This document shows positions 1,834-64,000 of a DNA stretch of 64,000 nt, in pieces. This stretch comes from Tribonema minus (Eukaryota; Sar; Xanthophyceae; Tribonematales; Tribonemataceae). A program made the position numbers and the translations under genes. Under the pieces are notes generated by a model that ran no database searches, had not been told where the DNA came from, and saw only the letters and a list, made by a program, of their open reading frames with translations. The stretch lies in assembly GCA_017506865.1 (NCBI GenBank), contig JAFCMP010000007.1:310001-374000 (forward strand), given 5' to 3'. Every line of letters starts with the position of its first letter. Within the stretch, counting starts at the first letter, position 1.

Positions 1834-4800
1834 ATGCAGCTCGTGCTCGTACTGGGAGCAGCTCTCGGAGCCGTGAACCTGCTGCAAAGCAGCGAGGCGG
1901 CATGCACCTCCATTGCAGTGGGCAAGCTGGCCTCGTCGGATGGGTCCACCATGGCGACGCACAATGCGGACTGTCTCGACTGCGATTTCAGGCTTGGCAA
2001 GGTGCCAGCGGCGGACTGGCCTGAAGGATCCATGAGGCCGATCATGAAGTACCGAGCGCAGTACCCTCGCACAGGCAAGCTGACTGAATGGGCACCTCAC
2101 TTCATGATTATATACCACTTTTTGTGACCGAGGTGCTGATTGAGGCATGCTGCGAGACGCTTTGTGGCGACAGAGCACAGACGTACAGCATCACCGCTCG
2201 AGGTGGGGGGAAGGTCGTCGCAGATGCCCACACACCTAAGTAATCACATTCAATAAATATTCAATAATATTATAGATTGAAGAATTTTTCTCAGTGCAGT
2301 CGCAGTGGCCATTGCAGCAGAAACGGCTTTCTCAGATGTCAGGTTTCCAGACAAGCAGTTCTGTGAGATGCTTATGCTTGAACGAGGTGCATGCGGTAGT
2401 GCCAACACACTCGAATAATTAGCAGTTCTTTAAAATGATGAATTTCTGCAGTTGAGCTGAGGATGCAATCATCTTTTGCTCTTGTAACTATTGCAGCATT
2501 CATGCCAATCCAGCACACACAGAGCGCGCTCTTAAAAGCGGCGAATGGCTTCGACCAGTGCACATCAATTCAGCCATACGATATATGCAGCTGATTGCCA
2601 GCCAACGGACTGTCTGACAATCATAACTATAAGTCACATTTCAGCGGCGGCCGACGGGGACATTTCCTGTCGGCATTGCCTTTTGTAACCGACAAATCAT
2701 TGACTCACAAATGGACCTGAGCGCTTCAGGCCCTGCTTTGTGTACGTTTGTGTACGTCAGCACTGCCTTATGTAAACGGCAGATTGTAAGTCGGTGTAAT
2801 TTGGCACTGCCTTGTGTCAATGGCACATCGACCAGGCCCTTCGTTGTGTAAGGTGTGTACACTTGCATCAGGCACAGACAGTCATGGTTGCTCTAAAGAC
2901 TGCCTGGAGCCACATGCTGTAATGCCTAGTTCACTGGCATAGCGGAGACTAGCAAGCATGGACACCCTCGCCCCCCGAAGCACTGTGCATACGTGAAGGG
3001 GCAAGGAAAGTGCACTCTTGTATAATCAATACTGACGGTGATGTGTTTCATCCCGCTTACGCAGCGCTGACAATGCCTGCTGTCACTGACTACTCCGACT
3101 TTGTCATGCATTACATTGTATGATGCATTACATTAAGTAGAGCTGCTAAAGGGACTACCAGTCCGAGCAATGACTGAAACCATGTAGACAGTGGTTTGTG
3201 GACATGATGCGAGCTTAGGGTCGAGTTAGGGTTAACCCTAACTCTAACCCTAACCCTAACCCTAAGAAGGCAGGCCAATATGTCTGCCCATGGCATCTGA
3301 TCCTGGGCGAGCAAATGGCGAGCCCACCCCTTTACACATTCTATAGGCTTGCTCGCGAGTACAGGGATCAATCAGCGCGAATACATCTGCATGCATTACC
3401 CATCAGGGGCTCAATCACATGTGCTTTGAACCCCAAACTGCAGCATTGCTCGACAATTGCGGCCAACGGCCGCGGCTGAAGTTCGCAGGCAGCTGAGCCG
3501 CTGCCTCAACGCTCACCCCCTATCACAAGGGGTATGTATATAAATGGGAACGATTCATGAATCGTGGCGTTCTAGGTGACAAGGTGTGGTGAGCCGCCAG
3601 TGCCTTCCACCAATGACCCTGTATGTGCATCAGAAGTATGCCTCACCTGTATTCTTTTGATGTATGTGACAGCACACACACGTATGTGCGCATGAGGCCA
3701 TGCCGCCCTTGCTGCAGCAACAAATGGCGCTCGCAGAGTGACCCTCGACCGTCAGTTTTGACTGAGCGTTGCTGTATCGCATGAGCACTGCAGTCCATTG
3801 CTGCTGCAGATGCACTCGCAGAGTGACGCGTGACTTGCAGATGCACTCGCAGAGTGGCGCGTGACCCTCGGCGTTCAGATTTGACGGAGCCTTGTGCATC
3901 ACCTGAGCACTGCAGTCCATTGCTACTGCAGACTCGCTCGCAGAGTGATGTGTGACCCTCGGCCGTCAATCTTGACTGAGCCTTGTGCATCGCCTGAGCA
4001 CTGCAGCCCATTGCTGCTGCAGCAGACGCGCTCGCAGAGTGACGCGTGACCCTCGGCCGTCAGTCTTGACAGAGCCTTCTGCATCGGCTGAGCACTGCAG
4101 TCCATTGCTGCTGCAGCAGACGCGCTCGCAGAGTGACGCGTGACCCTCGGCCGTCAGTTTCGACTGAGCGTTGTGCACCGCTCGAGCACTGCAGTCCATT
4201 GCCGCAGCAGCTCGCAGTGTGATGTGTGACCCTGGGCCGTCAGTTTTGACTGAGCGTTGTGCATCATCTGAGCGCTGCAGTCACGGAGGACCGCGGCTCA
4301 ACATGGACGGCGGACAACCTGGACGCGAACCTGCCGCAGCGCGCGGTGTGGGCCAATCAGAGCTGGCAGGACGCCATGATCATCGATTACATACCGCAGG
4401 TATGCGCTCTATCGTTGTCAGTGCATGATCATTGTTGTTCACCTGTTGTAGCGGCGTTGGGTGTGGCGCGCAGTGTGGGCCAATCATAGCTGGCAGGACG
4501 CCATGATCATTGACTACATACCGCAGGTATGCACTCTATCATAGTTACTTCATCATGCTCAGTAACATTGTTGTTTACCTGTTGTAGCAGCGGGGTGGTG
4601 TGTTGGTTCTGGTCCGTTGTACCGGTCGAGCGAGAGTCAGACTCTGTTGCTGTGCTCAGCATGAGCACGTCCACGCTGGCACAAGGCTAGAAGATGTCAT
4701 TGGTGATGTATCTAGGCCCTCTGGGGGGCCAATTCCTGCAAGTGTTGCACAAAGTAAAGTTACATGAGCCATTGCATAATATTCCTGACACGGCAGATCA

Positions 4801-7800
4801 GGGCTTGTGTGGCGGAGAACACCACGAGGCGCATAGTGTACTGCAGTCGCACTGCTCGCAGTGAACTGTGTGCTGATAATGTACTCTGCGTCGACGCCAG
4901 CTGCAAGCGCAATCCTAGTGTGGATGGGATGGCATGTCGCCTCATATGCCTGTCACTCTGCCAGCTCAGTTTACAGCCTTGCAAATTTGAACATCAAGAA
5001 GTAGAGGCTGCCACTCTGGCCTTGACGTGGCTTGTGTGGGAGAAGCACGATGCATGCACTGATGTACCACCCACACCCTGACTCTCTGCTGCGAATGAAC
5101 AATAACCAAATGAGGCTGCCGAGACCTTCTACTTTTGATGGAGTCTGCTGCTCCTTTCTGATTGCATCAACATTGTTATCTGTCTGATCTGCCAGAGTAG
5201 CATTAACCATTGGACAATGATGTGGCCATCGTTGGCTACAGTGATTCACCCAGCATGGCGCCTGGTGCTGCTTCAGCTCTTGGTCAGCTGTGCTGAGCAA
5301 TGCTGACTTCTGCACTCATACAAAATCTGATGCGTTGTGATACGGCAGGTTCTGCACACTTTTGCCAGCATTGAGGGGCTGTATGGCGTGATCAATGAGA
5401 AGCAAGTGGGGATTGGGGAGTCTACGTGCGGGAGCCGCTTCTTTGCGGGACCGATAGGCGATGACTGCACCATGTGAGCCCTGAAAACTCATTGTTTACG
5501 TGTAGTTCACACGTAGTTCACACTGCATACTCTCCGAAAGACGCATGAGAGCCATGAGAATGCATGCATGCCTCCAGAAGACACGCTGCGGTATGCATCT
5601 TGGAAGGTATCAGCTATTGGACTCCTTCAGATTAGGGTCCATAGGCGACGACTGAACCATGTGAGACATGAATTATGTCCTTCACACTGCATACCTGAGA
5701 ACCATGAAAACCTATACCTTTGAAGTATTTCATTCTTGAGGTGTATGCCTCAGGAGGACACTGGGGCGTGTATGAGGGTATCAGCTGTTACATTCCTTCA
5801 GGTAAGGATTAGGGCTAGGTTTGTGCCAACCCTAAGATCTATACTGTAGAGTCCCACCATGTAGAGCAGGCTAGTCACAACCCTGAAGCCTGTCATTTCC
5901 TTGGAGTCCGTCATCAGACCCCATACGCAACGTCTGTCGTCGTTCGCAGCCACAGTCACCAACTCCCTGTCTGGTACACAAATCTGTTTGCATGGCCACC
6001 AACGGTGAGATGCATACACTGCATCAGTATGTGCCTCTGAAACTCACCGGCGCGCAAAGCATGTGGTGACACTCTAATGGTGGACTCCCAGCCCTGGTCA
6101 ATGCAGCCATCAGCATTGCGTGACTGAGCCCGTTGTTGAGCTGCAGCGCTGGTCCTGTCCTAGGGTTAGGGTCAGGTTAGGGTTGGAATTAGGGTTAGGG
6201 GTTAGGATTAGGGTTAGGTTAGCATGCGCGATTATTGACATTATCAGCATCAAAACCAATAGCAGCAGCGGCAGCAGCAGCTGAGCATCACTACCAGCAC
6301 CAGCACCAGTGCTGGGCGCTGCAACACGCGCAGCGCCTTGCCTGAGACCTGAAGTTCCCGGACGCTGTTGCAACGTGCACCAGTACTTGAATATTTTGCA
6401 CGCACTGCTTGACACTCAGGTCCCTTGTGCTGCGTACCAATTCGTCAGTCAGTAACCTCAGATGCGCACCTGCTGCACCCACTCTGAGATCTCTGGGAGA
6501 TGCAAAGAAGGTAGTGACCTGCATCCTCAACGCTACTGATATTGCAACCCCTGTGACAGCTACATAGTACATTACTAAAGCGTGCCTATTTGTCACCAGT
6601 GATTGGACTTCTGATCCTGCGAAACTGTACCACTTGAAAGTTAGCCAGATTTTGCACTATACTTGGCAGTCACGATGACTGCTGTCACTTGTGGCTACAG
6701 CAGTCTTCCCCAGATATAAATTGTGCCTACATTGTCCCATGCTGCGCAGGGCTAGGGTTGAGGTACGGATTCGGGTTAAGGTCAGGGTTAGTGTTAGGGT
6801 TTCTGCTTCATTGTGTTATTTCACAGCTGTGTACATACATTACGGGTCACCACAAAATGCGCCCCCACCGCAACAGTGAAGCCATCCACCAAAATTTCAC
6901 TGTAATTGCAACTTCATCTTCAACTCGAGCTTGAGCTCCACGTGAAGCACCACCAACCATACCACATTTGGGGCTGCTGTAAGTTCACCGTCCGGTTTTC
7001 CTCCACCGAACGCAATCTCTATCCGTGGCCTTAAACGTGAGATACATACACACGGTGCAATGAGTGCGCTAAAACGACGAACGCGCCTGTCATAACAGCC
7101 TTCAAGTGATTGATTTGTCTGATTTGTGGCTCTCACCCTGCCTGCAACCCCACTTTCAAACCATTTGCGACAAGAATATCACTGCACCACTGCTCAACGC
7201 CCCCTTGCACCACTGTTACTGTGCGCCCCCCCGACGCCCCCCTCCTGTCACCCTCAGGCTGCCTGCAGCCCCTCTTGCAACAGAAAATAACATTGCAGCA
7301 GCGCTCAACACCGTTGCACCCCTCCGCAGGCACGCCACCATCAATTGAAGGTCGGAAATATGAGCTGCATCGCCACAGTGCGCGCCAGCACCGCACAATG
7401 CTACCGTACCATCAAGCATCGCGCAAATCACCATCTGACTGTCACTCTGACTACGCACACCGGAAATCATGCAGCAGAGCTCAATGCCCATTGGACTGTT
7501 ATTGCCCCTCCCCCCACCCCCCCCACACACCCCCAAACCCCCTACAGGTGCACGGCCAAGATTGAGATCTCGGAACTGAGCCGCATCGCCATGGAGCGAG
7601 CCAGCAGCGCGCGCGAGGCCATCCAAATAATGGGCGACATGGCCGTCGAACTCGGCTTCTACGGCTCAGAGTGGGACCCCACGGATCTGTTCACGTACCT
7701 CGAGGCGGGAGAGTCACTGACGGTTACGGACCCAGATGAAGTTTGGATCTTCCACATCAGCTCCGATGACACGGCGACGAGCGCGGTGTGGGTCGCGCAG

Positions 7801-10800
7801 CGCGTGCCGGATGGGCACGTGAGCGTGGTTGCCAATCAGTTTATCATCCGCGCGGTGGATCCTGAGGCGTCGCCTGATGACATGATGTTCAGCGCAAATC
7901 TCTGGGATGTGGCGCAACGCGCGGGGCTGTGGGACCCTGAGGTGAGCGCTGCTGCGGCGGCCCTGATTCAAACCCTAACTCTAACCCTCGCAGCGGCATA
8001 ACCCTAGATCTAGGGTGATGATAGGGTACAGGTGTCACGCAGTAGCATCAGGGCTAGTATTAGGGTTAGGTAATGTTACAAATGTGAACCTGTGGGATGT
8101 GGCGCAGCGCGCGGGGCTGTGGAACCCTGAGGTGAGCGTTGCTGTTGTGGCGTAACCCTAGATCTAGGTCACGGTAGGGTACAGGTGTCACGCAGTAGGG
8201 ATAGGGTTCGGGTTAGGGTTAGGTAATTTTTACCAGTTTCTCATTCGCGCGGTGGATCCCGCTGCGTTGCCCGATGATATATGTTCAGTGCGAATCTGTG
8301 GGACGTTGCGCAGCGCGCGGGGCTGTGGGACCCTGAGGTGAGCGCTGCTGCGGCGGCCCTAATCCTAACCCTAACTCTAACCCTCGCAGCGGCATAACCC
8401 TATATCTAGGTTATGACAGGGTACAGGTGTCACGCAGTATGGTTTAGGGTTAGGGTTAGGGTAGGTAATGCGATGTGTTTGCAAAGAGACGTAAGATGAG
8501 CAGCTGCGGAGTTCATCACTTGCTGTCTGGCACAGGCCAAGAGGATTAGGCATGCGGGTGCAGCAGGAGTTAGGGTTAGGGTGAGGGTGAGGTTTGGTAC
8601 AGTGGCAAGACAAGAGAGCGTGCCCGCTAAACCAAACAATTGCCGTGTGAGCCCTTACATATTGTCATGTCAGGCACCTGAAGCCCTAAGGTTAGGGCTG
8701 GGCAGAGCACGCTCAGCAACTGCCTGAGCGTGGCAGCGTTAAGCATCCGTGAGCCGTAGACCCGGTGCTGCGATGCTCACCAACAGCCTCATACATGAAT
8801 TCATGCATGAATTGCGCAGCGTACCGGGCAGTGAACCCGTGTGGCATGACCAGTCGCGTCTGTGTGTGCTGTAAAGGCCGGGGTCGAGACTGGCAGCATC
8901 TACCTCTACCCCTAGCCCTTACCCTAATCCTAGGTTACTCGGCCTCGCTACATGTTTTCTGCGGCGGACGCTCTCGGCGCTAGTCTCACCATGATTCACT
9001 GCCCAATGATCATGATAATGCAAACCTGACCATGCAAATGCACGCAGAACCTTTGGGGCGCATCTGCGATTTATTCCGGACACTGACTGCCCTACATATG
9101 CCTGCTCTGCCCACTGCGCGTCGTTCGCTCTCGGTTCTCACACGCCGTCTGCGCACCTCCACCTCAGTACGCTCATTCATCACCTCCCCCTCACGTGCCT
9201 TTGTCATTGCCTTTGTCATCGACCGGTCGCCGCTCAACGCGTTTATTCGTCACCCCCCGCCTGCCCCCCCCCCCCCCCTTTTGCAGCACTACATACTGTC
9301 GCCCCCCCCCCCAGCAGCAGGGGATGCTGGACTCCACTGAGGCGTTTGCAGTGTGCCCGAAGGACCACCTCAATTCGGTCATTCTTCACCTCCCCCCAAC
9401 ACGCATTTGTCATCGCCCCCAAACTACCCCCCCCTGCAGCAAGGGATGCTGGACTTCACCAAGGCGTCAACGCATTCATCCGCCCCCCCCTGCCTGTCAC
9501 CCCCCAACTGCCCCCTCCCCCCCCCCCTCCCCCCTGCAGCAAGGGATGCTGGACTTCACCGAGGCGTTTGCAGTGCGCCCCAAGGACCAGCCGCACTACG
9601 CGTATTCCACGCGGCGCGTGTGGCGCGTTCTCGACATGGCCGCGCCATCGCTCAACCTGTCCCCCTACGTGGACACCATGGGGGATGGATTGCCCTTCTC
9701 CGTCGCGCCGGACGCGCCGCTGTCGCCGCGCGCGGTGCTTGCGATGGCACGCGACCACTATGAGGGGACGCCCTTTGATCTGAGCAAGGGGCTTGCTGCA
9801 GGGCCGTACGGAGATGTGGACAGGTATATACGCAGGGTGCACCGTGTTGTTCATGTTGGTTCGTTGTGTTCTTGAAAATTGCACGATGTGTTATTGCGTG
9901 CGGTGCTTGCGATGGCGCGCGGTCACTATGAGGGGACGCCGTTTGATCTCAGCAAGGGGCTAGCGGCAAGGCTATATGGGGATGTGTACAGGGCTGCAAG
10001 CTCCATCATGTCAATGAAAGTATGTTCCTTGAGGTATGGAAGTTGAGGTATTGAAGTTAGAGATGCGAGACGTGCTGGCGGGGTGCGCCATGACCATGAG
10101 GGGACGCCGTTGGACCTCAGCAAGGGGGCGACTTCGAAACATTGTAGTTGATGTACATCCTTCATGTAGAAGTACTACTTTGAAGTATATGTTTGTGCAA
10201 TCCATGTACGCACCGCTCATAAACGCTAATCACCATGAGGGGACGCCGTTTCGACCCCAGCAAGGGGCCGACGACGGGGGTCGTGAAAGACCTAGGCGAG
10301 TAAACTTGTGCATGCACTTTGAATCATCATGTACTTGATGCACCTTCTTTGTGTGCTAAGTAGATGTGTGTGCAATTCGTATAGAAGTATGCACTATGCT
10401 CACAAACACTGCATAACTGCATAACCCAACAGGTATGACCCCGGACGTCAGCGGACGGCTCCATCACTGGCGCGGATGTGCTGGAGGCTGGCTACTTGGA
10501 CCGCTATGCTTACCTAAAGTATTTTGAAGCAATTGTGCATGAGCTGTGGACAAACATCATTGACCGCTCACAAAGAGCCTCACTCTCCATCAATCCTTCA
10601 GATATGACCCCGGAACGTCAGCAGACGGCTCCATCACCGGAGCGGAGGCCCTCGAAGCGGGCTACTTTGAGCGCTCCATCGGCCTCTTCCGCACCGCCTA
10701 CAGCGTCGTCACGCAGTCACGCCGCGCACTACCCGACGCGGTGGGGGCACTGGTCTGGGTGGCGCAGTACAAGGGCAGCGCCAGTACCTACGTACCCATG

Positions 10801-13582
10801 TACGTGGCGGCAGACGACGTGCCGGCTGCGTATCGCTGTGGCTCGCTCTTTGCGTACACCAAGGTGAGCAAGCGGGTGTGTGTGTGTGTGGGGGGGGGGG
10901 GGCTTCAATGCTGGGGGGAAATTTGTGTTTTCGGCAGGATTGTCTGCTGTCTGCTGTGTTGTAGATAGTGGTCGGTGTGACAGCGCACGCGTATTGCTGC
11001 GGTTCGCTCTTTGCGTACACCAAGGTGAGCCCGAAGGGTGTGGGGGGGGGGGGGGGGGGGGGGGGGGGATCGATGCTGGGGGAAGCATGTGTTGCTGCAC
11101 GGTCCTGCTGTCTGCAGTGATGTAGATGGTGGGCGGTGTTGAATAAACGCCCTGCGCATGTAGTGGTTCGATGTGGTACTACGGTTGACGACTGCACAGC
11201 TTGCAGCAGTTCTCTCGAAGTTTCTGTAGCACCCAATATATGAAGTCACTGACTATGTACTAGGCAGTGGTGGCCTTGGACCAAAGGAGGGTCAGGTCTG
11301 GGCAGCGCGCGCACTTGATGATGCTCTGCCTGAGCAATGCTGCAAAGCGCATGCTGTGCACACCAGCATGAACGAGATCTGTCGGTGTGACTGCAAGAAT
11401 ACAGCACGCTGCTATACAAAGTACAGAAGCCTTGGCAAGGAGATGATCGTGTAAGATTGTACGGACAGGCTGAAGGGCACTTTTCTGCACCAAAGATGAT
11501 GGTGTGCTGTTAGCGCACCGCTGCGTGCAGCCTTCAAGTTACACTGCTGATCACAGCACGCATCACTGAGTTCAGACATCCATATGTGCTGTTTCATTGC
11601 CATCAGCACAGTGGACAATTGGAATGCCAATCACTGCATGTGCGGACGCTTGCCATTCTACAGCGTGCCCATCCTGCGTCTGAATGACACACAGCGTCAC
11701 AGACTCTGTAACTGCCATCCTGACCCTTGCCCTGCCGGCCATCCAAACCACAAACCAAGCCCCTGGTGATTGCTCTTGATGACCACAAGCGTTATTCAAA
11801 CACTCTTGGCAGCCGATGATCAAGTACTCGCATCACGCCGGCCGCGTGTGCATCAACTTCAAGTTGCGCTCATCACAAATCTGCAACTGTGACGCCGCGA
11901 CCCTTTGCCTTCCGCTCAGCCGCTCGCGGCAGATCGAGCCCCAACCCAGACAACGACAGCAGTATCGCTCCCAGAAACTATAACTTGCCTCCATGAAAGC
12001 CTCTTCTAGCACTGGTGTCCTCACATGATCAGCCAGGCCGACTCTCACATGATGAGTGAGGGCAACTCAGCCTCAGACTCTCAGACCTATCACCCCCCGC
12101 GCCGTCACTTGCTCCCGTGACTGCAGGACGCCGCCTACTGGGCCTTCAGCACGGTGGGCAACTGGATGTCAAAGTACCGCAAGTACTCGCACCCTGACGT
12201 GGCCGCGCTGCAGGACGAGCTCGAGGCGGCGCTCTTTAGTGCTCAACCTGATGTCGAGGGCCGCGCCGCCGACATGATTCAGGTAGAAATACTTTGAAGT
12301 ACTAACTTCAATTTTGAACCCTGAAGTCATCGACATGATCAAGGTAACCCTTAACCCTCACGGTACACCCTTGACCCAAAGCCCCTGCTTTCATCAGTGC
12401 TCAACCTGATGTCGAGGGTCGCGCCGCCGAGATGATTAAGGTAGTAATACGCACTCCAAACCGCTAATCCTCAAACACCTCACAAAGCGCCGTCCGTGGG
12501 CATGATTAAGGTAGTAATACTCACCTCAAACCCCTAACCCTAAGACCCGATTTTGATCAGTGCTCAACCTAATGTCGAGGGCCGCGCCGCCGACATGATC
12601 GAGGTAACCAACTCCCCTTACCCTAAAACCCCTATTTTCATAGTGAAGGTGTTCAGTTTGATCAGTGCTCAACCTGATGTCGAGGGTCGCGCCGCCGACA
12701 CAATGAAGGTGAACTACCATGCAAAGCAAACTATAAACCCCTGACCCTAGAATCCTGTTTTCATCAATGCTAGCCCTAACCCTGACCCCCGTCTGTCATC
12801 AGCGCTCAACCTGATGTCAAGAGCCCCACTGCCAGCATGATCTAAGTCACTCTAAGTAGCCCCGAAGCCCTAACCCTAAACCTCTGCTTTTATCAGTGCT
12901 CAACCTGTGGTGTCGAGAGCCGCACCGCCAGCATGATTAAGGAACCCCTAGCCCTGTACCCTAATAAATTAAAGTCAGTTTGTAGCCAGCGTGTCATCAT
13001 GTAGCCAGCGTGTTCGCATCGAAGGCGTTCACTCAATAGACTGTGCTTACCCCTGGTTCATTGTCGACAAGTTACTTTTGATGAGTTCACGACCGCCAGA
13101 CGCTTGTGCATTCTACATGATACATGCGATGAGACAATGTAGTGCTGACGCGCAATGACATGATCAACGGGCCTGATGACATACATGTTGACCAGTGACC
13201 GTGGTCAAGCGGTCACAGTATCTCAGCCTGTTCTACAACCATTTCGGTCAATGTAGGCGAGGGACCCTTCAGGGCGCGAGCCTTCTTAGGTATTTCGGCG
13301 CGCGCGCGATTCTGGCCTAGCAATTCACTTTGGGCTTGCCAGTTTTTGCAAAGCCATTCACCACTCCCAGCGGGAACACCCTGGAAGCCTCGAGCTTATT
13401 CTGGCGCTGGCTCTCCAGCGCGTAGGGCGCAGCTGCACAGGCGGCGCTGAGCGCGTGCAGCGTATCGACGCCTGGCACGTATTGTACGGCCACGCTTCAC
13501 GGCCTGCAGGGCGCGCTCATCATCTCACCACTTTTCCACCTCACGGTAGTGAAGTTGTGCGTAACAGCTTTGAAGTTGCAGA

Positions 13583-13619
<37 letters not shown>

Positions 13620-15307: not shown

Positions 15308-16031
15308 GGTTCAGCGCTGTACTCCGCATGTGGCTGCGTGTGACGCGCCGGGGTAGAGGGTAGTACGTGTGGGTTGCCCCCTTGCAGGGGGGGTGCACTA
15401 TGCACATGGTAGCATGGTAGCATGCTGCACCTTTAATCACCACCGAAGGCGCCGTGCCGGTGGTTTTTGTACGCGCAGAGACGCCCATTTGAGAGGTCGC
15501 CTCTGCTCACGGCGGACCATGGGTTAGAGTCAGGAACAAAGCGCAGTTGTAGCAGAAGTGCCCGATTTTGCCTTCGCGGTCACAAGGTGCTTAAGAGAGG
15601 TTTTGGCGCGGCGCAAATGAACGCTGCGCTCTGGCCGTTCGACTATGTCGAGTCGACTGCCTCCTCCTGTCGCACACCACAGCGCATGCAACTGCCATGT
15701 AAATATCATTTGCTTTCCATCAACTCAGGCATGTGTTCCGTATTTCCAGGTGCTTTCTCTCTCGGCACCAGCAATACTCGCTCACCCGCCAAATCAACAG
15801 CAGAGCTACCAGCAGCTTTACCACACTCACTTGCACTGACATGTAGGCGGGCATTATTTCTGCAGGACACCCCCTGTGCAATAGGGTGCTTCTCTCCTGA
15901 CACCATCAATAATCATTTATCCCCTTCTCGCATCAACAGCAGTGCAATCATCAGCTTTGCCACACTCACTTGCACTGACAGGCGCATCCTTTTTTTGCGA
16001 TCACTCCACTCCCCACCCACCCTCCCACCCA

Positions 16032-16062
<31 letters not shown>

Positions 16063-29599: not shown

Positions 29600-31978
29600 C
29601 TACACTGGCGAAGCCTCTGGCGCAGCGGCCGCCGCTGGCTGCTGCTGCGCGCCCGCCGCCGCTGCTGCTGCTGCTGCTGCGGCCGCTGCTGCTAGTGCTG
29701 CTGCTGGTGCTGCTTGATGATGGCCTGTGGCTCGTTGTCTTCTGGCCTGCAGCCACCCCCTCAGCGCCCCCCGCAGGTCCTGCACCGTGTGCGTCTGTGC
29801 CACTTCGTAGAAGCACTCGCGCAGCGGCTGCGCCGCGATGCGCAATGCGCGCCTGCGCAAGTGTGCACGTGGAGCGTCACTTCACAGCGTCAGTGCTCAG
29901 TGCGTGTTGTGGAGCATCACATCATTACACAGCGTAGCCGCGATGCGCAACGCACGCCTGCGCAGGTGTGTGAGGAGCGTCACTTCACAGCGTCAGTGCT
30001 CAGTGTGCACGTTGAGCGTCACTCCACAGCGCCATACAGTACTGAACCTGATGACGTGCATTGGTTGCTTGAGCGCATTCAACAGATGGTGCAGGCGTGG
30101 TGCCTCCCGACAAATTTAGGCAATGCTCACAAGCAGTAGCAAGTGCCATGCAACACCGCTTGCACACCGCATACTGCAGCCTGACTGGTACCAGCCAGTG
30201 TGCTGAGCGTTGCTACGTAGAGGGTAGGTAGGTATCGTACCGACATGCGGCCAGGTTGTTGCTAGGCAGTGTACTGAGCGTTGCTACGCAGAGGGTAGGT
30301 AGGTACGTACCTGCATGTCCACGGCTCCGCAGGCTCGTGCACGGGCTGCTTGCACAGCGGGCAGACGCCCTTTGTGGCAAGCCAAGTGTCCAGGCATGCC
30401 TGCAGAGAGACACACAAAGTGCTGCAACTCAGCAAACATCTATACAATAGGTGGTGAACAATTCTCTTTTAAAAGAGGCAAGCGTATAGCTCATGTAGCT
30501 TGAACGATCACAATGCACGTTGATGAGATCGACGCACTGATGGGCTGTGCGGCGCATGCTGTACTCGTGTGCACAACACGGCGACCTGCTCATCCCACCT
30601 AGTCAAGCGTGCAGCACACCAGCTCGAAAAGAACATCACCCGGTGATGCCGGCAGTGGCAGTTACAACACCGCACCTCCCTCTCGCACACACACAACGAA
30701 TGTGCATGCATGTCACTCACACACGAATGCATATGGCACTAAGTATCATTCCACTCGGTTCGCAACCTGCCCGCAGTCGCCGCCCCCCTCTCCCCCACCA
30801 CCAGCCCGCAGCGCACAGCCCACAGCACGGCCCCTTGCTGAGCGCTGAGCACCTGCTGCTGAGCTGCCTTAAGCTACCGCTGAGCACTGCTCAAATGCTG
30901 CAGAGCGCTGCTTTTGTTTACCCCCGCCACCCCCCCCACCCCCGACCCCCCCGCCCCTCGATGCTCACCGCTGCCGCTGCATCACCACCAGCTGAGCGCG
31001 TAAATTCGATTGTCGCAACAATTGGTGGCTCAGACAGCACCAGCAGCACCCTGAAGTCAGCTGAGCCCGCAAGTTCGTTTGTCGCAAGCATTGGTGGCTC
31101 AGACAGCACCAGCAGCACCCTGGAGTATACGCTGAGCACTGCTGCTGCGGCTGCTCGCTGCTGCTCACCTGGTGGTAGCGGTGGTTGCAGTGCGGCACCA
31201 CGCGCAGCATCTCCCCGCTCTCAAACCCGCACAGGCACACCGCGCAGATGGCGTCGCCATCCACATCCCGCGCCTCTTCTAGAGCCGCGGGCGATGACTT
31301 GACCGCCTTTATCTCCCCTTCCGCCGTCGATGCTGCCGCCGCCGCCGCCGGTGTTGCACCGGCGCAGCGCGCAGCGCCGCCGCAACAGACGCCCCCCTGT
31401 TCAGGGGTACCCGGCGTAGCGCAACACACGCCCCCTTCATCACCAGGGGTCATCGCTACAGAGGGGTGTTGAGCACTGCTGCAAGAGACCCCCTGCCCTC
31501 GGTCGGGCGTCCCCCCCCTCGGAGGGGGACACTTGGCGGCCTTGAAGGGCTCCAGGGGCAGCGAGTCTATGGCAGCCTTCGTCAGCGCGTGCTCGCCGCT
31601 GCGGCGCCGCTCCGCAGCGGCGGCGTAGTTCTGGCGCGCCTGCGCGAGCTTGCGCGAGACGCACACCAGCACCGCGAACGCGAGGATCGAGTACAGGCTC
31701 CCCAGCAGAACGTTCTTCAACAGGGAGTGTTCCTTGTGTTCCTGCGCGGGAGAGTCATCGGAGTCGTCGCCGTGCCCCCCCCCTGGCTGGTAGTGTTCGG
31801 GTTGAAGTTCGGCGGCGGACGGGCTCTGCAGATGCCGCGCGGCCGCTGCTGCTGCTGCATTTATGCTGGCAGTTACACTGGCAGTTACGGTGTGCGCGAC
31901 GCATGCTGCCAGGAGGGCCCTGGTCGCGACAGACGTGCGGGGGGGGGGGGGGGAATGAGTGCGAGAGATACGTGTCAA
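29600..31978 (-). CDS. Membrane-anchored RING-H2 zinc finger protein (putative E3 ubiquitin ligase), at least three exons
   Basis: Exons on the minus strand: from about 31978 to 31169, 30399-30311, 29852-29600; the phases join cleanly. The frame has a hydrophobic N-terminal stretch (ATRALLAACVAHTVTASV), a transmembrane segment (LLGSLYSILAFAVLVCV), a cytoplasmic low-complexity region, and a RING-H2 split by intron 1: CAVCLCGFESGE...PHCNHRYHQ in exon 1, then ACLDTW...CPLCKQP in exon 2. All eight zinc ligands (C-C-C-H-H-C-C-C) are present. Exon 3 encodes LRECFYEVAQTHTVQDL and a poly-Ala/Gln tail. The general form is that of ATL-type ligases. The start is unresolved: the frame at 31978 opens with TTG and stays open upstream, so the real ATG probably lies in an upstream exon. 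Confidence 0.85.
29828..30310 (-). repeat. RING gene intron 2 with an acceptor echo and a donor echo
   Basis: The exon 3 acceptor region (plus-strand 29828-29862) recurs at about 29935-29972, each followed by 'GAGCGTCACTTCACAGCGTC'. At the other end the exon 2 donor region (plus-strand 'AGAGGGTAGGTAGGTACGTAC') has a copy at about 30195-30250 in which the donor is degraded. Confidence 0.82.
31000..31140. repeat. Two-copy tandem repeat in RING intron 1
   Basis: A unit of about 67 bp containing 'TTGGTGGCTCAGACAGCACC' occurs twice, at about 31003-31068 and 31069-31135, just inside the exon 1 donor. A C-rich tract lies at 30920-30955. Confidence 0.85.
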
Positions 31979-34398: not shown

Positions 34399-34412
34399 CC
34401 TCCCCAATTTGT

Positions 34413-52644: not shown

Positions 52645-52986
52645 TGTTTGCTCAGAGGGTGGTGTGTGCAGCAGTTGTGCTTGGTCAACGACCGTGCCAT
52701 AGCACAAGCGCCGCATCGCCTGTCGTGTGCCTGTACCCTGAGCGCACCGCGCAGGCGCTCGTCTGCACCAGCAGGTCATCTCGCCACATGTGCCTACCCT
52801 CAACGCGACAGAACCGCCACGCGCACAACGCGCAGGTGCTCGTCGGCACGAACCGGAAGCGCGAGCGCGACCTCGCGGGCGACGTCATCTTACACCACGG
52901 CTGTGCAGCCATTGTCACACAACACTCTGCAGCGTTCCCACTCTCACCCTCCGCACTGTACACATTGCTCTGCACGCGGCGCGCAG
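52645..52986 (+). repeat. Intergenic region holding echoes of the hydrolase exon acceptor
   Basis: The exon beginning CGCAG|GTTCTCGTTGGCACGAAC at 52987 is preceded by a close copy at about 52828-52890 and a weaker one at about 52748-52785. The first exon of the hydrolase, with its start codon, should lie here but I could not identify it. Confidence 0.75.
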
Positions 52987-55900
52987 GTTCTCGTTGGCAC
53001 GAACCGCAAGCGCGAGCGCGACCTCGCGGGCGACGTCATCTACGGCCCCGACCTCGCCCCCGGCGGCGCGCCGCTGCAGTGGGCGCTGCTGAGCATCGCC
53101 TTCGCGGCAGCGCTCCCTGAGCTCGGCGGCGCCGCCATGTTTGTCGACACTGGCGAATACACACTAGTGGGCACGTACGTACTGACGGCGGCGGCGGCGG
53201 CGGCGCTGCTGCGCGGGCACCCTGCGCGGCGCGCGCTCGTCTACGTGCACGGCTTCAACAACTCGCTGACACATGCTGCGCGTACGGCGGGGCTGTTTGC
53301 GCGCGCGCTGCATTCGCCGCTCACGGTCCTGCTGAGCTGGCCCAGCGACCCGCAGCAGACGGGCCGCGGCTGGCTGCTGGAGAAGGTGCGCTAGCCCTAA
53401 CCCTATTTGTGCGCATTCGCGTGTGTGAATCAGCGCTTTCGGGGCGGCGGTGTGGCTGCTGGAGAAGGTGCGCTAGCCCTAACCCTAGTTGTGCGCATTT
53501 GCATTTGAGTCGGGCGCTTTCGGGGCGTTGGGGCAGGGGTTGTTTGGTAGGGTTTGTAGGGCACTCCTCAGCAGACATGTACCGCCGCCTTGCGCACACC
53601 TGCTGCCATCTGGACAGTACGTACTGCGCAGGTATGTAACCCGCAGCGGCACACGGCCCCTTGAGCGCATTGAGCTTGTGTCAACTAAGTAGATGCTAGG
53701 GCTGGGGCTGTCAAGGTTTCGGGTGGCTCACTGCTGCATGGCACGGGACGTTTGTGCATGCGCTGCTCTCAAAGCTGGTTGTTTCGCTGAGGTTGCTGCG
53801 CAACTTGCAGCAGAGGGCACAAGGTCTGCTTGATCGTGTGTCGGGATTGAGCATTGTTGCCTTCAAAGTTTGGGATTCCAGGCCCTAACCCTGACCCTGA
53901 CCCTAAGGGAGATTGCACGCAAGCGCACACGCCGGCCAGGGTATATACAGCATCCATTTAACAGGACGCAGCTGGGTGGGGTTTGAGTGAAGGGGAGGTC
54001 GCATGGTGGAGGTGCCATGATCTGCAGCAAGATGCCAGAGTGTATCTTTGCACAACAGCAAGTTTGCCTGAGAGGTCAGTTGAAAAAGGCTTACCAGGAC
54101 TGATGCTGCGGGTACAGTGCACCCCACCGCGCAGTCCTCGGTGACCGAGGTACGGGCGTATTGAGGTTGGGTTCAGGCACAGGCAACCCGGACTCCTGCC
54201 ATGTGGCAAACTTGACATTGCCGACAGTGCGGACCCCCACGTTATGCCCGCCCTGATGAGAATGTCCGTACTTCAACATCAACATTGCCACTGAAATATA
54301 ACTTCAACTTCACCGTCCCCCGCCGCCGCGCCGCGCCGCCAGGTCATGTCCGCCTACGAGCGCAGCTACACGCGCTGCGAGCACAACATGCACGCGTCGG
54401 TGCGGCCCTTCGTGCAGGCGGCGCTGTTCCTCGCGCGCATGCCGCAGGCCATAACGTGGAGCGCGCACAGCATGGGCTGCTACCTCCTGCTCAACGTCAT
54501 GGACAGGCTGCAGTACGAGAGCGGCAGCAGCGGGCTGAGCGCTGCTGACATCTTCAGCCGCGTCGTCCTCAGCGCGCCGGACGTGCCCACGTGGTGAGCG
54601 CAACTTTCTCTGCCTGTGAACAGCGCAACCGTGTGGCGCAGCGCTTGATGCAGCTCTCTCTCTGCCTATGAACAGCGCATAGTTGCAGTTGCTCCCTGTT
54701 TGAGTCGTCATTTTCAGGTGTGCAGCGGCGTCGTCCTCAGCGCGCCGGACGTGCCCACGTGGTGAGCGCTGCTGCTGCTGCTGCGCCACGCGATTGATGC
54801 AAGTTTCTCTGCCTATGAACAGCGCAGCTATGTGGCGCAGCGCTTGATGCAGCTCTCTTCGCCTATGGACCGCGCATAGTCGCAGTGTTGTCATTGTCTG
54901 CGTGATGAGCGCTGCCGCTGCGCCGTGCGCTTGAGGCAGCTCGATCCGCCGCCTATGAACAGCGTACACTTGCGGTTTTTGTGTGATCTGTACCTTGAAC
55001 AGTGCACAGTTCAGTGCCGTGTTGCACCACAACCCAACCCCCACGTGCCCTGAGCTGCATGAGCCTGTCTATATAGTTGCGGTGGTCGTCATTGTCAGAC
55101 GGTCACGGCAGCGAGCCATGTCAGTGCTCAGTAGGACCCAACCCCCACATGCACTGAGCTGCATGAGGGGTCTCGTTCTGCAGAGCTCGCTTACACACTG
55201 CCCCCTTCCCCCCCCTTCACAAGCCTCATGAGCGCTCTTGGTTAAAAATATTCAGATTGCTCACGCACTTGTCTTCCCCCCCCCCACCCCCCTCACCCCC
55301 TTCAGGTTCTTCACGTCGACTGTCGCCGCAGCAGCGAGCCGCGGCGTGCGCATCTGCCACTACTACCACCCCGATGACCAGGCCACAGAAGCCTCAAAAA
55401 AGCGCCGTGCGACAGAGGGGCCGTGTCCCGGCAATGCGGCAGTGCTCATAGCAGAGGGCGTTGAAACTGTTGACTGCAGCGGCGCGCGCAGCGCCAGCAT
55501 CGGCGCGAATGTGTCGCTGAACCACGACTACGGGCGCTGCGATGGGTACGTATTGTACTGGTGAAATAAGCTCGAAGTTGATATGTGTTGGTAATTGACG
55601 TCTAACGTCATGAGGTACGCTGCTAACCCTAACCCTAAGGTGATGGGACATATCGTTGAACCACGACCACGGGCGCTGCGACGGGTGCGTGGCTCGCTGT
55701 GTTGGTGCACCAAGCTCAAAGTTGATGTGTGTTGGTACTTGCCCCAGACTTGGGAAGGCGCGCTGTATAAGGTGATCGGACATCAAACTGGTGCCGCCGC
55801 ACTTGAGCGCTGCTGTTGCGCCAGCATTGGCGTGAATATGTCACGGAGCCACGACCACGGGCGCTGCGACGTTGACCTGCGCACCGCTAAGGCGCGCTGT

Positions 55901-56820
55901 GTGTGCTGATGTCTACACACGCTTCAATCAATTTCAAGTCTGCTGTTGCCGCCGCAATCCATGGCAGCGAGAGCGCAAGCGATCGGCATGAATGTGTCAC
56001 GGACTCACGACTATGGGCGCTGCGACCGGTACGTGGCGTCGCGCAACGCACACCTGAGGCGCGTTCTGCGTCGGGTGATTTCATACACAACTTGACGCTA
56101 ACTTCAATCTGAAGTGCGCTTTTGGTGACCCTGCTCCGAGAGGTGCCGTCCCGCCTAGAGCGCGGACACTCATGCAAGCTTGTGGCTGAACCCTGATCGC
56201 CATCGCTGCGATGGGTACGCGCAGCGTGTGCTGCGCATCACTCACGTTGACCACACGCACTGGAGGCTCGTTGCGCTGGCACCTTCTCATACGATAGATG
56301 AGTCATACCTGTAGAATCTGTCGAAGGGCTTCTCATCTCAAGTTTGCTGACGCTGCCCCACTTGCGGAGCTGTCATGCAACAATGTCATGCAACAATGCG
56401 AGCACGGCGCAATTGTAGCTACATATACTTGTGAGCACACTGGCAACAGGCACTGGGCGCGGTGTGCCACCCAGGCTCCATGCTGCAAACTGCATCCCGA
56501 GAGAGCGCCCCCTTTCTAAGGCACTGCGTTCCCTTTCTGAGGCACTGCCTTGGGCGCCCTTGCATCGGCTGAAAATTGCATCAGCTGAACGGCAGTGTTG
56601 GCATTTAACTTGGCTCTGATGCGACTTACTTCGCAGCATGTTGTGCAGTGTTTCTCATTTTTCAACCTGTTGTCGTGGTCTTCGCCGTCGCCACAGGTAC
56701 TGCCTGCTGGATCAGCGCGAGTTCCTGGAAGGCGAGCCGCCAGAGCAGCGCGTGCTCGACGCTGCCTCAGCCGGCGGCAGCGCTCCGCCGCAGTGGCGGC
56801 TCGTCACATCCAGGAAGTAG
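52987..56820 (+). CDS. DUF900-type alpha/beta hydrolase, four exons seen (5' end unresolved)
   Basis: Exons 52987-53385, 54343-54593, 55306-55545 and 56697-56820 give 337 codons with matching phases. The frame begins VLVGTNRKRERDLAGDV, close to the usual N-terminus, then RRALVYVHGFNNSLTHAARTA (oxyanion-side HGFNN motif) and LLSWPSD. Exon 2 has the nucleophile elbow ITWSAHSMGCYLLL with Ser in A-H-S-M-G, and VVLSAPDVPTW. Exon 3 has RICHYYHPDDQA, carrying the likely acid, and NVSLNHDYGRC with the likely catalytic His. Exon 4 ends the protein. The family is a COG4782-like serine hydrolase group of unknown substrate. Every intron carries echoes. The start codon is not found; a short upstream exon is likely within 52645-52986. 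Confidence 0.82.
53386..53560 (+). repeat. Echo of hydrolase exon 1 end and donor
   Basis: The junction TGGCTGCTGGAGAAG|GTGCGC with the following CCCTAACCCTA and TTGTGCGCATT is repeated at about 53450-53505. 'GCGCTTTCGGGGCG' occurs after each copy. Confidence 0.9.
53880..53907. repeat. CCCTAA/CCCTGA tract in hydrolase intron 1
   Basis: About four degenerate CCCTAA units. The rest of this intron (53560-54342) shows no coding signal. Confidence 0.75.
54594..54990 (+). repeat. Echoes in hydrolase intron 2
   Basis: The exon 2 end (GTCGTCCTCAGCGCGCC...CACGTG|GTGAGCGC) recurs at about 54728-54770. A following block, 'GCCTATGAACAGCGCA' with 'GCGCTTGATGCAGCTCTCT', occurs three to four times up to about 54965. 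Confidence 0.88.
55640..56225 (+). repeat. Four echoes of the hydrolase exon 3 end
   Basis: The exon 3 end with donor (AACCACGACTACGGGCGCTGCGATGG|GTACG) recurs at about 55655-55690, 55848-55875, 56003-56036 and 56185-56222. The copies diverge progressively and each is followed by related intron sequence ('GTACG.GGC' and 'AAGTTGATGTG' blocks). A CCCTAA tract lies at 55624-55640. Confidence 0.9.
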
Positions 56821-60753: not shown

Positions 60754-63700
60754 ATGATGCGCGACACGAGCACAGACACGCGCGCTCCCTTTGAGAATGG
60801 CCACGCTGCTGAAGTCAACGCGCTGCCTGAGGGATCAAGCGCTGAATGGCGCGACGCTGAGGAAGGCACGTCCGATTCAAAACTTGATGTTGAAGCAGGA
60901 TTGCGGCAGCAGCTCGCCCTCACAAGGCTGAGCCAAGTCTTCAAAGGCGACAAGGATGCAGAGGCTGCGCGAGCGTTCCCGCCTTCACGCATTCACTGGG
61001 AGCGGCTGCAGTGGTGGCACGTCCCGCTGCTGTGTGCGTATGCGCCATTCGGTGTAGTCCTGGCCTTGCTTAGATTATTGGCTCTCGTCGTGGTGTTCAT
61101 CGTCTGGGCTGTGTTGGGGAAGGAGAAATTTGGTGGGCAGCGGCGGGTCAAGACGCTCAAGGCCATCTTCTGCTACAAAAGTGAGGTAAGACTGTGTGCG
61201 GCACTCGTTTCATGTTTTGTGAATCACAAAGCACTTCAAGTAATTGAAGTTGATAAAGATAGCAATTGATCGGGTGAAGCTCTGTCACGCAAGCACACTA
61301 GACAATGTTAAATTCGTGACAGCATTCAGTACACTGTATCGCAGAAGATGCTCACGCCAGTGGGCATAACTTCAAGCCTATAAGAGTTGCCCTTCAGTGA
61401 ACTCCAGCTCACTTGCCTGGCATAGTCGAGCATGTCATCGAGCCGCAGTGCTGTGCCAGTTGAACCATACAGTATGACATGATGTACATTCATACAACAA
61501 ATGTCATCTGCTGCCGCGGTGCCGGCGGCCTCCAGACAGTGTCACAACGGCGGATGCATCGACCATGTGCGCAGTGCTGGGACGCACAGGTGCCAATGGC
61601 ATTACATTTAATGGCGGTGCCCCGGCATCGAGGGCATCGGTAGCGCCGGCAGCAGCGTCCAAAGACTCTGAGGTGCAGCGCGTGCAGAAGCGCTGCCGGC
61701 GGCGGCGCCCAACACATTGCCCGCGTGCCAAACTTCAAGTTGAAGTAGTGTTGGCAATGGCAACCAACGACAAGGCATGTTGCATCAGTCTGTACCTTCG
61801 TCAGAGGTGATGGGGTCGCTGACAGCGTACACACACTTCGAGTTCTCTTAAGTTCTATCTGGGCTCCTGGACTGGGGTCCGCACAATCCTCCTTGACACG
61901 GTGGTGGGTGCGATGCAGCTTACCTGAGGGTTCAGGTTTAGGGTGAGGGTCAGGGTTTAGGGTTACTGACCTGAGCTTCTTTTGCCCCATTGCGTGGCCG
62001 TTGCGTGTTGCTCGCACCAGGCATGGTACAAGGACCCTCAGCGAGGCCTGGTGCCGTGGTCTCTTGCCACGGTTGTGTTACCCAAGGGCAAGGGCGTAAT
62101 TCTTGTGCCCGAGCACCATAATGGAGGCCACGGTAAGTGGTGGCAAGTTGCTGCCCTGTTCATGGTGCTCTGATATGCACAACAGTAATCACACTAGCCA
62201 TACAGCACGTGTAGACGAGCTTCACGAAGGTGCACATGTGTAACTCATGTTGGAGCTTGAGGGGGATTCGAGGCACTTTGTCCTACCTCAACGTTCAAGC
62301 TGTGACAGTTATAGCAGCGCGTGACGCGACTGCCAATCATGAAATGCAGCACCTCGTCACAGTGCGCCTTGAGGTCTTCAGTCAAGCAAATACCAGCTTT
62401 GGTCCATGATGCGTGCTGCCATTGGAACTTGATGTCATGGTGCTGCTGACTGCAACATGGAGGTGTTCAAAAGGACGGACGCTCAGCTTGGGTCAGTGAA
62501 TGTGTCAGTGCCGCAGCGCTTGTGACGTTTCGCAGGCTGTGCATTAGACTACTGACTACAACAATATTTCAACAACAACAAAAAAAAGCATAGCCCCCGC
62601 CAGGTCCTCGGAGTCAGCGCTCAGCCCATGTTATCATGACTTTGTACTTTGAAGCTCACTGGATCTTGAAGCGTTGTATGCGCAGAGAGTCAGCCGTGTC
62701 TCACAAACTGTGTGCAAGCATTCAATGTTCATCACCAAAGGACGCGAGTGAACTACGCTGCTGAGATCATGGTCAAGTCTGTGCAGCTGCTAGGACGTGC
62801 CTATGGCGCATGTCTCCTTGGAGGCCACTGGTATGGCATGCAGTACAAACCCTTCAGGAGGCTTGAGGGATCTCCAATTGCTCTTGCAGCTGCACTGGGG
62901 GTAGCAGCTACTGTCACAGTGCATCATAGGGTTAGCTAACCCTAACCCTATTCTGGCCCCAGGGCATCTACGCCCCCATGGTTGCCAATGGGCAAATTGA
63001 ATGCGCACTAAACAAGTCTTCCATTGCACTACTGCTAGACCTGGGCTCATGCAAATAAAGCTACACCGACAATGCCGTCGACGCTCAGTGACATTGCGTA
63101 TGTAACCGTCAAGGCTTATGCTACTGCAGTAGTAGTACTGGCTAGTGTGACACGTGCTGCGGCGCGGAACAGCACCCACAGCTGTTAACACGTTAGCACG
63201 TTTTATATGCTGACCGCTGCTGAGTGCAATCGCTGCCACTGACTGCTGGTGGCTCCAAAATCAACATGACATCACCCCTCGCACACAGCCTGCAGGTCTA
63301 TATCCCTACACCGATCTTGGAGCGTAGCCCACTGGCACTCCCCGCCGCTGCGTCGCACTGTCAGTACTTGGCTATCATAACGGAAGTCACTATGTGGCGC
63401 CGTTTGAGTTGTATGTAACATTCATCCCAGAGTTTTTGCCGCAGAAAACAGCAGCCATTGCCCAACATAGCAATAACCAATATCCTCTGCCCGCAGCCTT
63501 CCTATTACAGTGGCCTTGGCCATGGAGGTCAGCACTTTTTTGACTGGTATGTAACACGAGTCATGCACAGTTCTTGCTGCAGGCAACCGTGTCCATCGCC
63601 CAGCACAACAGCTACAACGCATGCACAGTTCCAACTCAGACTCCCTCTGCCCGCCGCTTTCCTGTCACAGAGGGCGTAGCTATGGAGGTCGGACCGGGCC

Positions 63701-64000
63701 CCCAGGGCTACGCCATGGCCTTCCTGACATAGACTAGGTCATTCAAACTATTTGCTGCAGGTAACAGTGACCATCGCCAAGCACAATTACAACAATTACA
63801 GATTTTTTCCACTTGCCGCCTTCGTATCACAGAGGCCTTAGCCATGGAGGTCGGACCGGGCCCCCAGGGCTACGCCATGACATTCCTGACTCACATCAAG
63901 GTCGCCACGTCGCGCGTCGCACAATTCGTGGGGCCCACGCACCTCGTGACGGTGCGCGGCCCCGTGACGCCGCGACTTGAAGATGCGGTTGAAGATTGGC
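60754..64000 (+). CDS. Membrane protein, possibly a glycerolipid (PlsC-type) acyltransferase, partial at right edge
   Basis: Exon 1 (60754-61185) starts MMRDTSTDTR and encodes a soluble N-terminus, then a hydrophobic stretch (HVPLLCAYAPFGVVLALLRLLALVVVFIVWAVLG). 'APFGVVLALLRL' resembles the 'PIGF.LA..R' stretch of plant-type glycerol-3-phosphate acyltransferases. A likely exon 2 (62021-62132, CACCAG|GCATGG to CCACG|GTAAGT) encodes AWYKDPQRGLVPWSL. A third exon starting at 63833 fits its phase and encodes EVGPGPQGYAMTFLTHIK, then VATSRVAQFVGPTHLVTVRGP, similar to the 'SRLSEI..P...VRLTRD' region of the same family. I did not find the NHx4D motif, so the enzyme call is tentative. The gene continues past the window end. 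Confidence 0.4.
61920..62952. repeat. Telomere-like tracts in the introns of the last gene
   Basis: Degenerate TTAGGG repeats at about 61930-61967, and a head-to-head TTAGGG/CCCTAA junction (GGGTTAGCTAACCCTAACCC) at about 62928-62951. The sequence between 62133 and 63430 has no coding segment that I can support. Confidence 0.7.
63425..63900 (+). repeat. Three-unit array of an acceptor and exon start
   Basis: The acceptor and start of the last exon (CAG|..GCC.TAGCCATGGAGGTC) occur three times, at about 63510-63536, 63668-63720 and 63831-63890. The units are 150-165 bp and share an upstream 'GCAG..AAC.GTG.CCATCGCC.A.CACAA' block. The third copy continues into a long open frame and is taken as the working exon; the second ends at a stop after GYAMAFLT. 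Confidence 0.85.

What the first reader, a model, noticed from the sequence alone, without database searches (positions are those of the whole stretch)
1834..63900. Splice-junction echoes: most introns carry degraded direct copies of their own exon-intron junctions
Seen directly in at least six genes (C69, RhoGAP, RING, DUF900 hydrolase, the right-end gene, and in weaker form others), on both strands. The copies span the junction: 20-130 bp of exon edge, the splice site and adjacent intron. Donor and acceptor sides are both affected, with one to six copies, and divergence differs between copies, implying repeated events at different times. Tandem duplication of AGGT-containing exon sequence is a known route to new introns. 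Here the pattern implies instead continual intron growth by local tandem duplication centred on splice junctions, perhaps aided by a break-prone site or by splicing-linked DNA damage (inference).
Basis: partly seen in the sequence, partly recalled or inferred. Interest (0 to 1): 0.9.

Follow-up and report, generated by a model that had tools for sequence, protein, structure and literature searches.

The report
Introns carrying copies of own junctions
In an alga related to the brown algae, many introns contain decayed tandem copies of the exon edge and splice site beside them; in two genes checked against mRNA-derived proteins none of the copies reaches the product, so introns here keep a record of local DNA duplication that splicing makes harmless.

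Summary
In 314 kb of this 158-Mb stramenopile genome, 65 of 176 predicted introns carry direct copies of their own exon edge (52 at the donor, 28 at the acceptor). Controls give 0-1%. Two genes, methionine synthase and the window's secernin, were checked against transcriptome-derived proteins 99.6% and 97% identical to them. There 24 of 32 introns carry echoes, no control matched, and no echo is in the transcript product. 'Most introns' holds for those two genes, not for the sample; echoes sit in 14 of 36 multi-exon predictions.

The copies are junction-spanning tandem duplications, median offset about 160 bp, and mostly drift as non-coding DNA. Local duplication also happens inside introns, but donor-spanning units are about 2.5 times commoner than uniform duplication predicts (24 against 9.5) and rare at stop-codon edges (3 of 46 against 52 of 154). 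Genes rich in echoes are rich in interstitial telomere repeats (Spearman 0.83, n=21). I read the echoes as scars of small tandem duplication during DNA-break repair, kept because splicing uses the outermost sites. Why junctions are favoured is not settled.

The parts
1834..2074 (+). secernin (peptidase C69) exon 1, GC donor
   Evidence: gene model; transcript protein P0241 collinear from residue 67; Pfam PF03577
3701..4282 (+). tandem array (offsets 123-488 bp, smallest 123) running up to the exon 2 acceptor
   Evidence: self-BLAST; sequence; not scored by the exon-edge rule
4281..4399 (+). secernin exon 2
4467..4526 (+). donor echo of exon 2, 93% over the exon part
   Evidence: unit 127 bp
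5349..5473 (+). secernin exon 3; weak donor echo about 188 bp downstream (62%)
7548..7941 (+). secernin exon 4
8087..8337 (+). two donor echoes of exon 4 (8087-8131, 8281-8337)
   Evidence: self-BLAST 7837-8075 vs 8234-8470 87.5%
9318..9467 (+). two acceptor echoes of exon 5 (9318-9372, 9440-9467)
9540..9823 (+). secernin exon 5
9932..9991 (+). donor echo of exon 5 (further partial copies near 10090-10132 and 10229-10272)
10434..10491 (+). acceptor echo of exon 6
10602..10863 (+). secernin exon 6
10989..11024 (+). donor echo of exon 6
   Evidence: unit 161 bp
12127..12282 (+). secernin exon 7
12391..12941 (+). five donor echoes of exon 7, all starting at the same exon point (e = 45 nt)
14036..14191 (+). 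secernin exon 8
14259..14318 (+). donor echo of exon 8, 92%
14687..15307 (+). secernin exon 9 with stop
   Evidence: start; end set by eye and the transcript tail
29832..30034 (-).
   Evidence: self-BLAST; below the strict rule
52742..52775 (+). acceptor echo upstream of predicted exon 52812-52883; that stretch is itself 95% like 52980-53041
55653..56025 (+). three donor echoes of the exon ending at 55545 (same gene)
63671..63728 (+). acceptor echo of the right-end gene exon starting at 63833

Best explanation
Each echo is the second (or later) copy of a short tandem duplication, typically 110-210 bp long, that ran from the last or first 25-105 nt of an exon across the splice site into the intron. 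Splicing keeps using the outermost sites: the most upstream donor and the most downstream acceptor. The inner copy is therefore removed with the intron, costs little, and drifts as non-coding DNA. Shown: local direct duplication, junction-spanning geometry, mostly drift, and absence from the transcript product in two genes. Also shown: an excess at donors over uniform duplication, and concentration in certain genes together with interstitial TTAGGG repeats. Inferred: the duplications are scars of repair of DNA breaks in introns, by fill-in of staggered ends and end joining. CST/Pol-alpha-primase fill-in is reported to make small tandem duplications at 3' overhangs, and telomere repeats are reported at repaired breaks. 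Inferred and least certain: that the breaks themselves favour exon-intron junctions. Selective survival of harmless junction-spanning units, and a higher rate in exon sequence whose internal duplications are purged, could produce part of the excess.
For: Direct 339 against inverted 7 within 700 bp. Exon edges match in own intron 54 of 164 donors and 29 of 166 acceptors, controls 0-1%. The intron part next to the echo is also homologous in 28 of 51 first donor echoes at z>3. Offsets: median 160 (donor) and 168 (acceptor) bp; interior families median 159, so one size class. Drift: 37 of 38 donor-echo indels and 25 of 27 acceptor-echo indels break the frame; donor-echo differences by codon position .10/.08/.20 fit a free echo plus synonymous change in the exon; splice dinucleotides decayed to GT 71 of 95, AG 40 of 48. 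Transcript products: MetH 1,223 residues with 5 differences and secernin residues 67-779, both collinear with the exons without echoes. In the checked introns 12 of 28 GT-bearing donor echoes score at least as high as the donor in use. Excess: 24 against 9.5 donor, 14 against 7.9 acceptor. Genes: heterogeneity chi2 48.5 against simulated mean 21; interior families 3.5 against 1.1 per 10 kb in echo-bearing and echo-free genes; ITS 1.81 against 0.19 per kb; echo-bearing introns hold ITS more often (29 of 65 against 19 of 111); a telomere hexamer lies within 40 nt upstream of 13 of 95 donor echoes, random 5.6 +/- 2.2. Telomere arrays (CCCTAA)n at 3 of 10 contig ends read.
Against: Telomere repeats are not enriched in gaps between copies (0.0044 against 0.0066 in the rest of introns, 33 gaps); before first echoes they occur in 6 of 51 against 3 of 51 at the end of the second copy and 3 of 51 in control introns, a small difference. 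Within echo-bearing genes echo and ITS do not associate significantly by intron (P 0.18). So the break-repair link is mainly at gene level, and some echo-free predictions look by eye like mobile-element genes. In 16 of 51 first echoes the intron part shows no homology (z<2), among them cases with a well-kept exon part, more than plain drift predicts. Among echoes with exon identity >=0.88 the donor codon-position pattern (39/16/115) looks partly coding, so a minority may be or have been exons. The hold-out rate was lower (2 of 12 each). Microhomology at breakpoints was not tested. No comparison with an echo-free relative was possible.
Confidence: 0.6

Rival explanations
1. Uniform neutral tandem duplication only. 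The genome duplicates 100-200 bp pieces at random; exon-internal events are purged, and junction-spanning ones survive and stay visible longer because the exon half is conserved. No junction preference exists.
For: Interior and intergenic duplications exist; interior offset median 159 bp equals that of echoes. Exon conservation lengthens visibility. The acceptor excess alone is modest (14 against 7.9, P 0.02), and the near-donor background is raised.
Against: A simulation with that visibility effect expects donor:acceptor:interior 0.23:0.23:1; seen 52:27:43 = 1.21:0.63:1. With exons masked, so that only intron-intron similarity counts, donor-touching families are 24 against 9.5 expected (P 1e-5). 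Donor exon parts are shorter than uniform breakpoints give (mean 55 against 75 nt; 2% against 24% above 100 nt). Stop-codon edges, which have the same half-conserved design, show 3 of 46.
Confidence: 0.25
2. Junction-directed duplication (a sharper form of the best explanation, not exclusive of it). Transcription or splicing places nicks or breaks near exon-intron borders, so tandem duplication is initiated there.
For: Donor excess, short exon parts, concentration in particular genes and few echoes at stop edges, telomere repeats in the same genes.
Against: More than half of the families touch no junction (43 of 81); no break, nick or R-loop data; the near-donor background is itself raised.
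Confidence: 0.3
3. Functional exons: the echoes are alternative or duplicated exons under selection.
For: 71 of 95 donor echoes keep GT; about ten echoes were called exons by the gene finder (my reading of 23 similar adjacent exon pairs); coding-like codon pattern in the best-conserved class.
Against: Donor echoes rarely have an acceptor at their left edge (AG directly at the edge in 6 of 95, some of whose rows are misaligned). Frame-breaking indels are 62 of 65. Transcript products of two genes contain none.
Confidence: 0.07
4. Introner-like or other mobile elements, or an assembly artefact.
For: Many introns affected at once.
Against: Echoes are private to their junction: donor edges occur in 0 of 608 other introns of the same gene, and donor and acceptor edges in 0 of 32 foreign introns each. 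Most copies differ from the exon by several to about 24 percent and by indels, which assembly duplication would not give.
Confidence: 0.02

Closest known systems
[quoted passage not shown] potato RdRp case PMC4974935, abstract and results section read; review PMC3443670, passages read)
   Same: Short tandem genomic duplication inside a gene; in the potato case the unit spans an intron-exon boundary.
   Different: Here the duplication lengthens an existing intron instead of making a new one, is found in a large share of introns of some genes, and in the two checked genes the product is unchanged.
Small tandem duplications by CST-guided Pol alpha-primase fill-in and end joining (PMC8355091, abstract and passages read)
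   Same: Direct, local tandem duplications, attributed there to fill-in of complementary overhangs.
   Different: The paper works with induced breaks in mammalian cells; here no break, overhang or enzyme has been shown, and units sit preferentially at splice junctions.
Interstitial telomeric sequences inserted at repaired breaks (PMC2246262, listing and outline only)
   Same: Short TTAGGG repeats of the organism's own telomere type inside genes.
   Different: Here they are concentrated in introns of echo-rich genes; insertion was not shown by an empty orthologous site.
Introner elements (PMC9860276, listing only)
   Same: Mass effect on introns of one genome.
   Different: No dispersed family was seen; copies are private to one junction in the genes tested.

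Membership tests
[quoted passage not shown]
   339 direct against 7 inverted; spacer homology in 28 of 51
[quoted passage not shown]
   in MetH and secernin the transcript product uses the existing outer junctions; other genes not checked
Small tandem duplication by CST/Pol alpha fill-in | Direct tandem duplication of short units | tested here: met
Small tandem duplication by CST/Pol alpha fill-in | Formed at breaks with complementary 3' overhangs, CST dependent | not testable with these tools
   needs break mapping and mutants
Interstitial telomeric sequences | Repeat unit equals the organism's telomere repeat | tested here: met
   (CCCTAA)n at 3 of 10 contig ends read; intron 8-mers 1.35 per kb against 0.07 shuffled
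Interstitial telomeric sequences | Inserted at a break, shown by an empty orthologous site | not testable with these tools
   no second genome of the lineage was available
Introner elements | Similar sequence shared among introns of different genes or positions | tested here: not met
   donor edges 0 of 608 other introns of the same gene; donor and acceptor edges 0 of 32 foreign introns each
Alternative or mutually exclusive exon duplication | Copy has its own acceptor and is included in mRNA | tested here: not met
   AG directly at the left edge in 6 of 95 (some rows misaligned); absent from two transcript products; other isoforms not seen

The most novel reading that the evidence does not exclude
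Exon-intron junctions, donors above all, are hotspots of DNA breakage in transcribed genes of this alga. The breaks are healed by telomere-type end processing, with fill-in giving tandem duplications and telomerase leaving TTAGGG scars. Introns here grow by repair scars centred on their own splice sites, and splice-site choice by position (outermost wins among near-identical sites) is what makes this tolerable.
Probability: 0.2. Interest if true: 0.88.

Novelty: new variant of a known kind. Interest (0 to 1): 0.68.

Why it matters
Introns keep a readable record of local duplication with a built-in clock: one copy held as an exon, the other free to drift. That lets duplication rate, size and site preference be measured gene by gene. 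Each affected intron is also a natural experiment on splice-site choice: several nearly identical donors or acceptors lie in tandem, and in the 24 echo-bearing introns checked the outermost is the one in the transcript product, even when an echo site scores as well or better (donor 12 of 28, acceptor 6 of 15). If junctions are true hotspots, it would tie transcription or splicing to DNA breakage and give a concrete route by which introns lengthen.

Tried and rejected
Echo as mini-exon: rejected by left edges. Telomere repeats as the joint between copies: not supported by the gap test. A sharp fall of identity at the splice site in an ungapped profile first suggested exon-only copying; gapped alignment showed intron homology in 28 of 51, so I dropped that reading as a general one. 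A line that splits interior families by echo status is wrong (a dictionary filled itself) and is not used. Some rows list a later copy aligned to an earlier one; one search replaces its unit sizes. The search for telomere repeats in the genome found nothing because simple repeats are skipped. Ten paper searches were answered; one more request was rejected for a character. Of the ten, six were aimed at the pattern itself (39, 48, 50, 51, 82, 83). I saw titles and abstract starts of capped lists, and none reported genome-wide junction echoes.
Full report
What was examined. The window is bases 310001-374000 of contig C7 of a 158.18-Mb, 554-contig assembly. Its proteasome alpha subunit is 71% identical to Chrysoparadoxa and 70% to Scytosiphon, so the organism is a stramenopile near the brown-algal lineage; the species stayed unnamed. 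Besides the window I read 250 kb from contigs C1-C5, ten contig ends and 30 kb of C6 as a hold-out.

Gene models. I wrote a two-strand hidden Markov gene finder and trained it on long open reading frames and then on its own calls. It called all nine secernin exons that I had read by eye. It gives 176 introns with both exons in view. It can fuse neighbours (secernin with the following gene, methionine synthase with a preceding one). One exon of methionine synthase was missed and was added from the transcript product, and its last two predicted exons do not match that product.

The echoes are real. At score 18 or more, the last 40 nt of an exon match its own downstream intron in 54 of 164 cases and the first 40 nt match the upstream intron in 29 of 166. 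Reverse complements gave 1 of 164 and 0 of 166, foreign introns 0 of 163 and 1 of 165, exon-interior probes 0 of 81 and 1 of 81. With a stricter 60-nt rule there are 95 donor echoes in 52 introns and 48 acceptor echoes in 28, 65 introns in all. The C6 hold-out, with fixed parameters, gave 2 of 12 donors, 2 of 12 acceptors and no reverse-complement match.

Transcript check. Protein searches returned transcriptome-derived proteins from what is probably the same or a very close organism. Methionine synthase P0145 matches 1,223 predicted residues with 5 differences; one 32-residue exon had been missed by the gene finder. Secernin P0241 matches residues 67-779 with 22 substitutions and three single-residue gaps, the gaps all after residue 667. 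Both run collinear through the exon junctions of these stretches. In these 32 introns there are 21 donor and 11 acceptor cases, 24 introns in all, against 0 of 32 reverse-complement donor, 0 of 32 reverse-complement acceptor, 0 of 32 foreign for each side, 0 of 29 exon-interior and 0 of 608 other-intron controls. No echo is in either product. These are assembled proteins, so minor isoforms remain unseen. Methionine synthase also aligns along most of its length with a solved methionine synthase (9ssp).

Anatomy. First donor units have an exon part of median 45 nt (25-105) and an offset of median 160 bp; first acceptor units 45 nt (24-93) and 168 bp. The intron part is homologous too in 28 of 51 (z>3), not visibly so in 16 (z<2). 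In 16 of 26 multi-copy donor arrays and 5 of 10 acceptor arrays the copies share one exon point, which suggests expansion of one first duplication. Exon parts are shorter than uniform breakpoints predict (donor mean 55 against 75 nt, acceptor 48 against 75). Of 23 similar adjacent exon pairs I read about ten as echoes that the gene finder called exons, with exon parts of 48-105 nt; one other pair aligns over 143 nt but away from the exon ends. So missed long echoes do not easily explain the short exon parts.

Fate of the copies. Donor-echo differences from the exon are .10.08 and .20 at the three codon positions (acceptor .09.08.16), and 62 of 65 indels break the frame. That fits a free copy facing a conserved exon. 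Against this, donor echoes of 0.88 identity or more show 39, 16 and 115 differences at the three positions, which looks partly coding; a minority may be or have been exons. In the checked introns 28 of 38 donor echoes keep GT and 12 of those 28 score at least as high as the donor in use; 15 of 15 acceptor echoes keep AG and 6 score at least as high. The outermost sites are the ones in the product.

Is the junction special? Local direct repeats also occur inside introns and, more rarely, between genes. A simulation of uniform duplication, including the longer visibility of exon-anchored copies, expects donor:acceptor:interior of 0.23:0.23:1; seen 1.21:0.63:1. With exons and echo exon-parts masked, 24 of 81 families touch the donor against 9.5 expected (P 1e-5) and 14 the acceptor against 7.9 (P 0.02). 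Families are denser near donors generally (24 start in 47 kb between 9 and 300 bp), which by my arithmetic lowers the donor excess to about 1.5-2 fold. Stop-codon edges show 3 of 46 and start edges 4 of 45, against 52 of 154 donors and 27 of 156 acceptors under one rule. So there is a preference, moderate in size. Selection and a higher rate in exon sequence are not excluded as its cause.

Gene level and telomere repeats. Echoes lie in 14 of 36 multi-exon predictions, donor echoes more unevenly than binomial over 21 genes with three or more introns (chi2 48.5, simulated mean 21.0, maximum of 5000 runs 51.1). Interior duplications follow the same genes (3.5 against 1.1 per 10 kb). TTAGGG-type 8-mers reach 1.35 per kb of intron, 0.37 between genes, 0.05 in exons, 0.07 in shuffled introns; 1.81 in echo-bearing and 0.19 in echo-free genes. 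Over the 21 genes, echo rate and repeat density correlate (Spearman 0.83). TTAGGG is the telomere repeat, since 3 of 10 contig ends read are (CCCTAA)n. A telomere hexamer lies within 40 nt before 13 of 95 donor echoes against 5.6 +/- 2.2 at random. But repeats are not concentrated in the 33 clear gaps between copies and, inside echo-bearing genes, do not significantly track echoes by intron. Some echo-free predictions look by eye like mobile elements, which inflates the contrast.

Mechanism. I favour break repair. Fill-in of complementary 3' overhangs by CST and Pol alpha-primase followed by end joining makes small tandem duplications (PMC8355091, abstract and passages), and telomere repeats are reported at repaired breaks in mammals (PMC2246262, listing and outline). 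Neither has been shown here. Tandem duplication is a known source of new introns (PMC3443670, passages), and one potato case spans an intron-exon boundary (PMC4974935, abstract and results section). In the capped lists of ten answered paper searches, six of them aimed at the pattern, I saw no report of it.

Noticed in passing
window 34453-35913 and 37249-38690: Tandem duplication, 73% identical over 1.5 kb, inside predicted coding stretches.
   Followed up: no
window 39872-40162: Tandem repeats (offsets 128 and 158 bp) in the predicted coding end of a minus-strand gene, about 92% identical.
   Followed up: no
   Followed up: partly
window 12280-12282 (secernin exon 7 last codon): The genome has Gln where the transcript product has Lys (Q527K); three of the five echoes of this exon end have AAG (Lys) at the matching place, as if echoes keep an older state. 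Read by eye.
   Followed up: partly
sample of 176 introns: Six introns begin with GC instead of GT, among them secernin intron 1.
   Followed up: no
G000:C4:500001-550000: This 50-kb stretch has no echo-bearing prediction and few telomere repeats (7 hexamers); some of its predicted proteins look by eye like mobile-element genes.
   Followed up: no
echo-bearing and echo-free genes: Echo-bearing genes have higher third-position GC (0.86 against 0.76, P 0.003), and introns with donor echoes start with lower GC (0.48 against 0.55).
   Followed up: no
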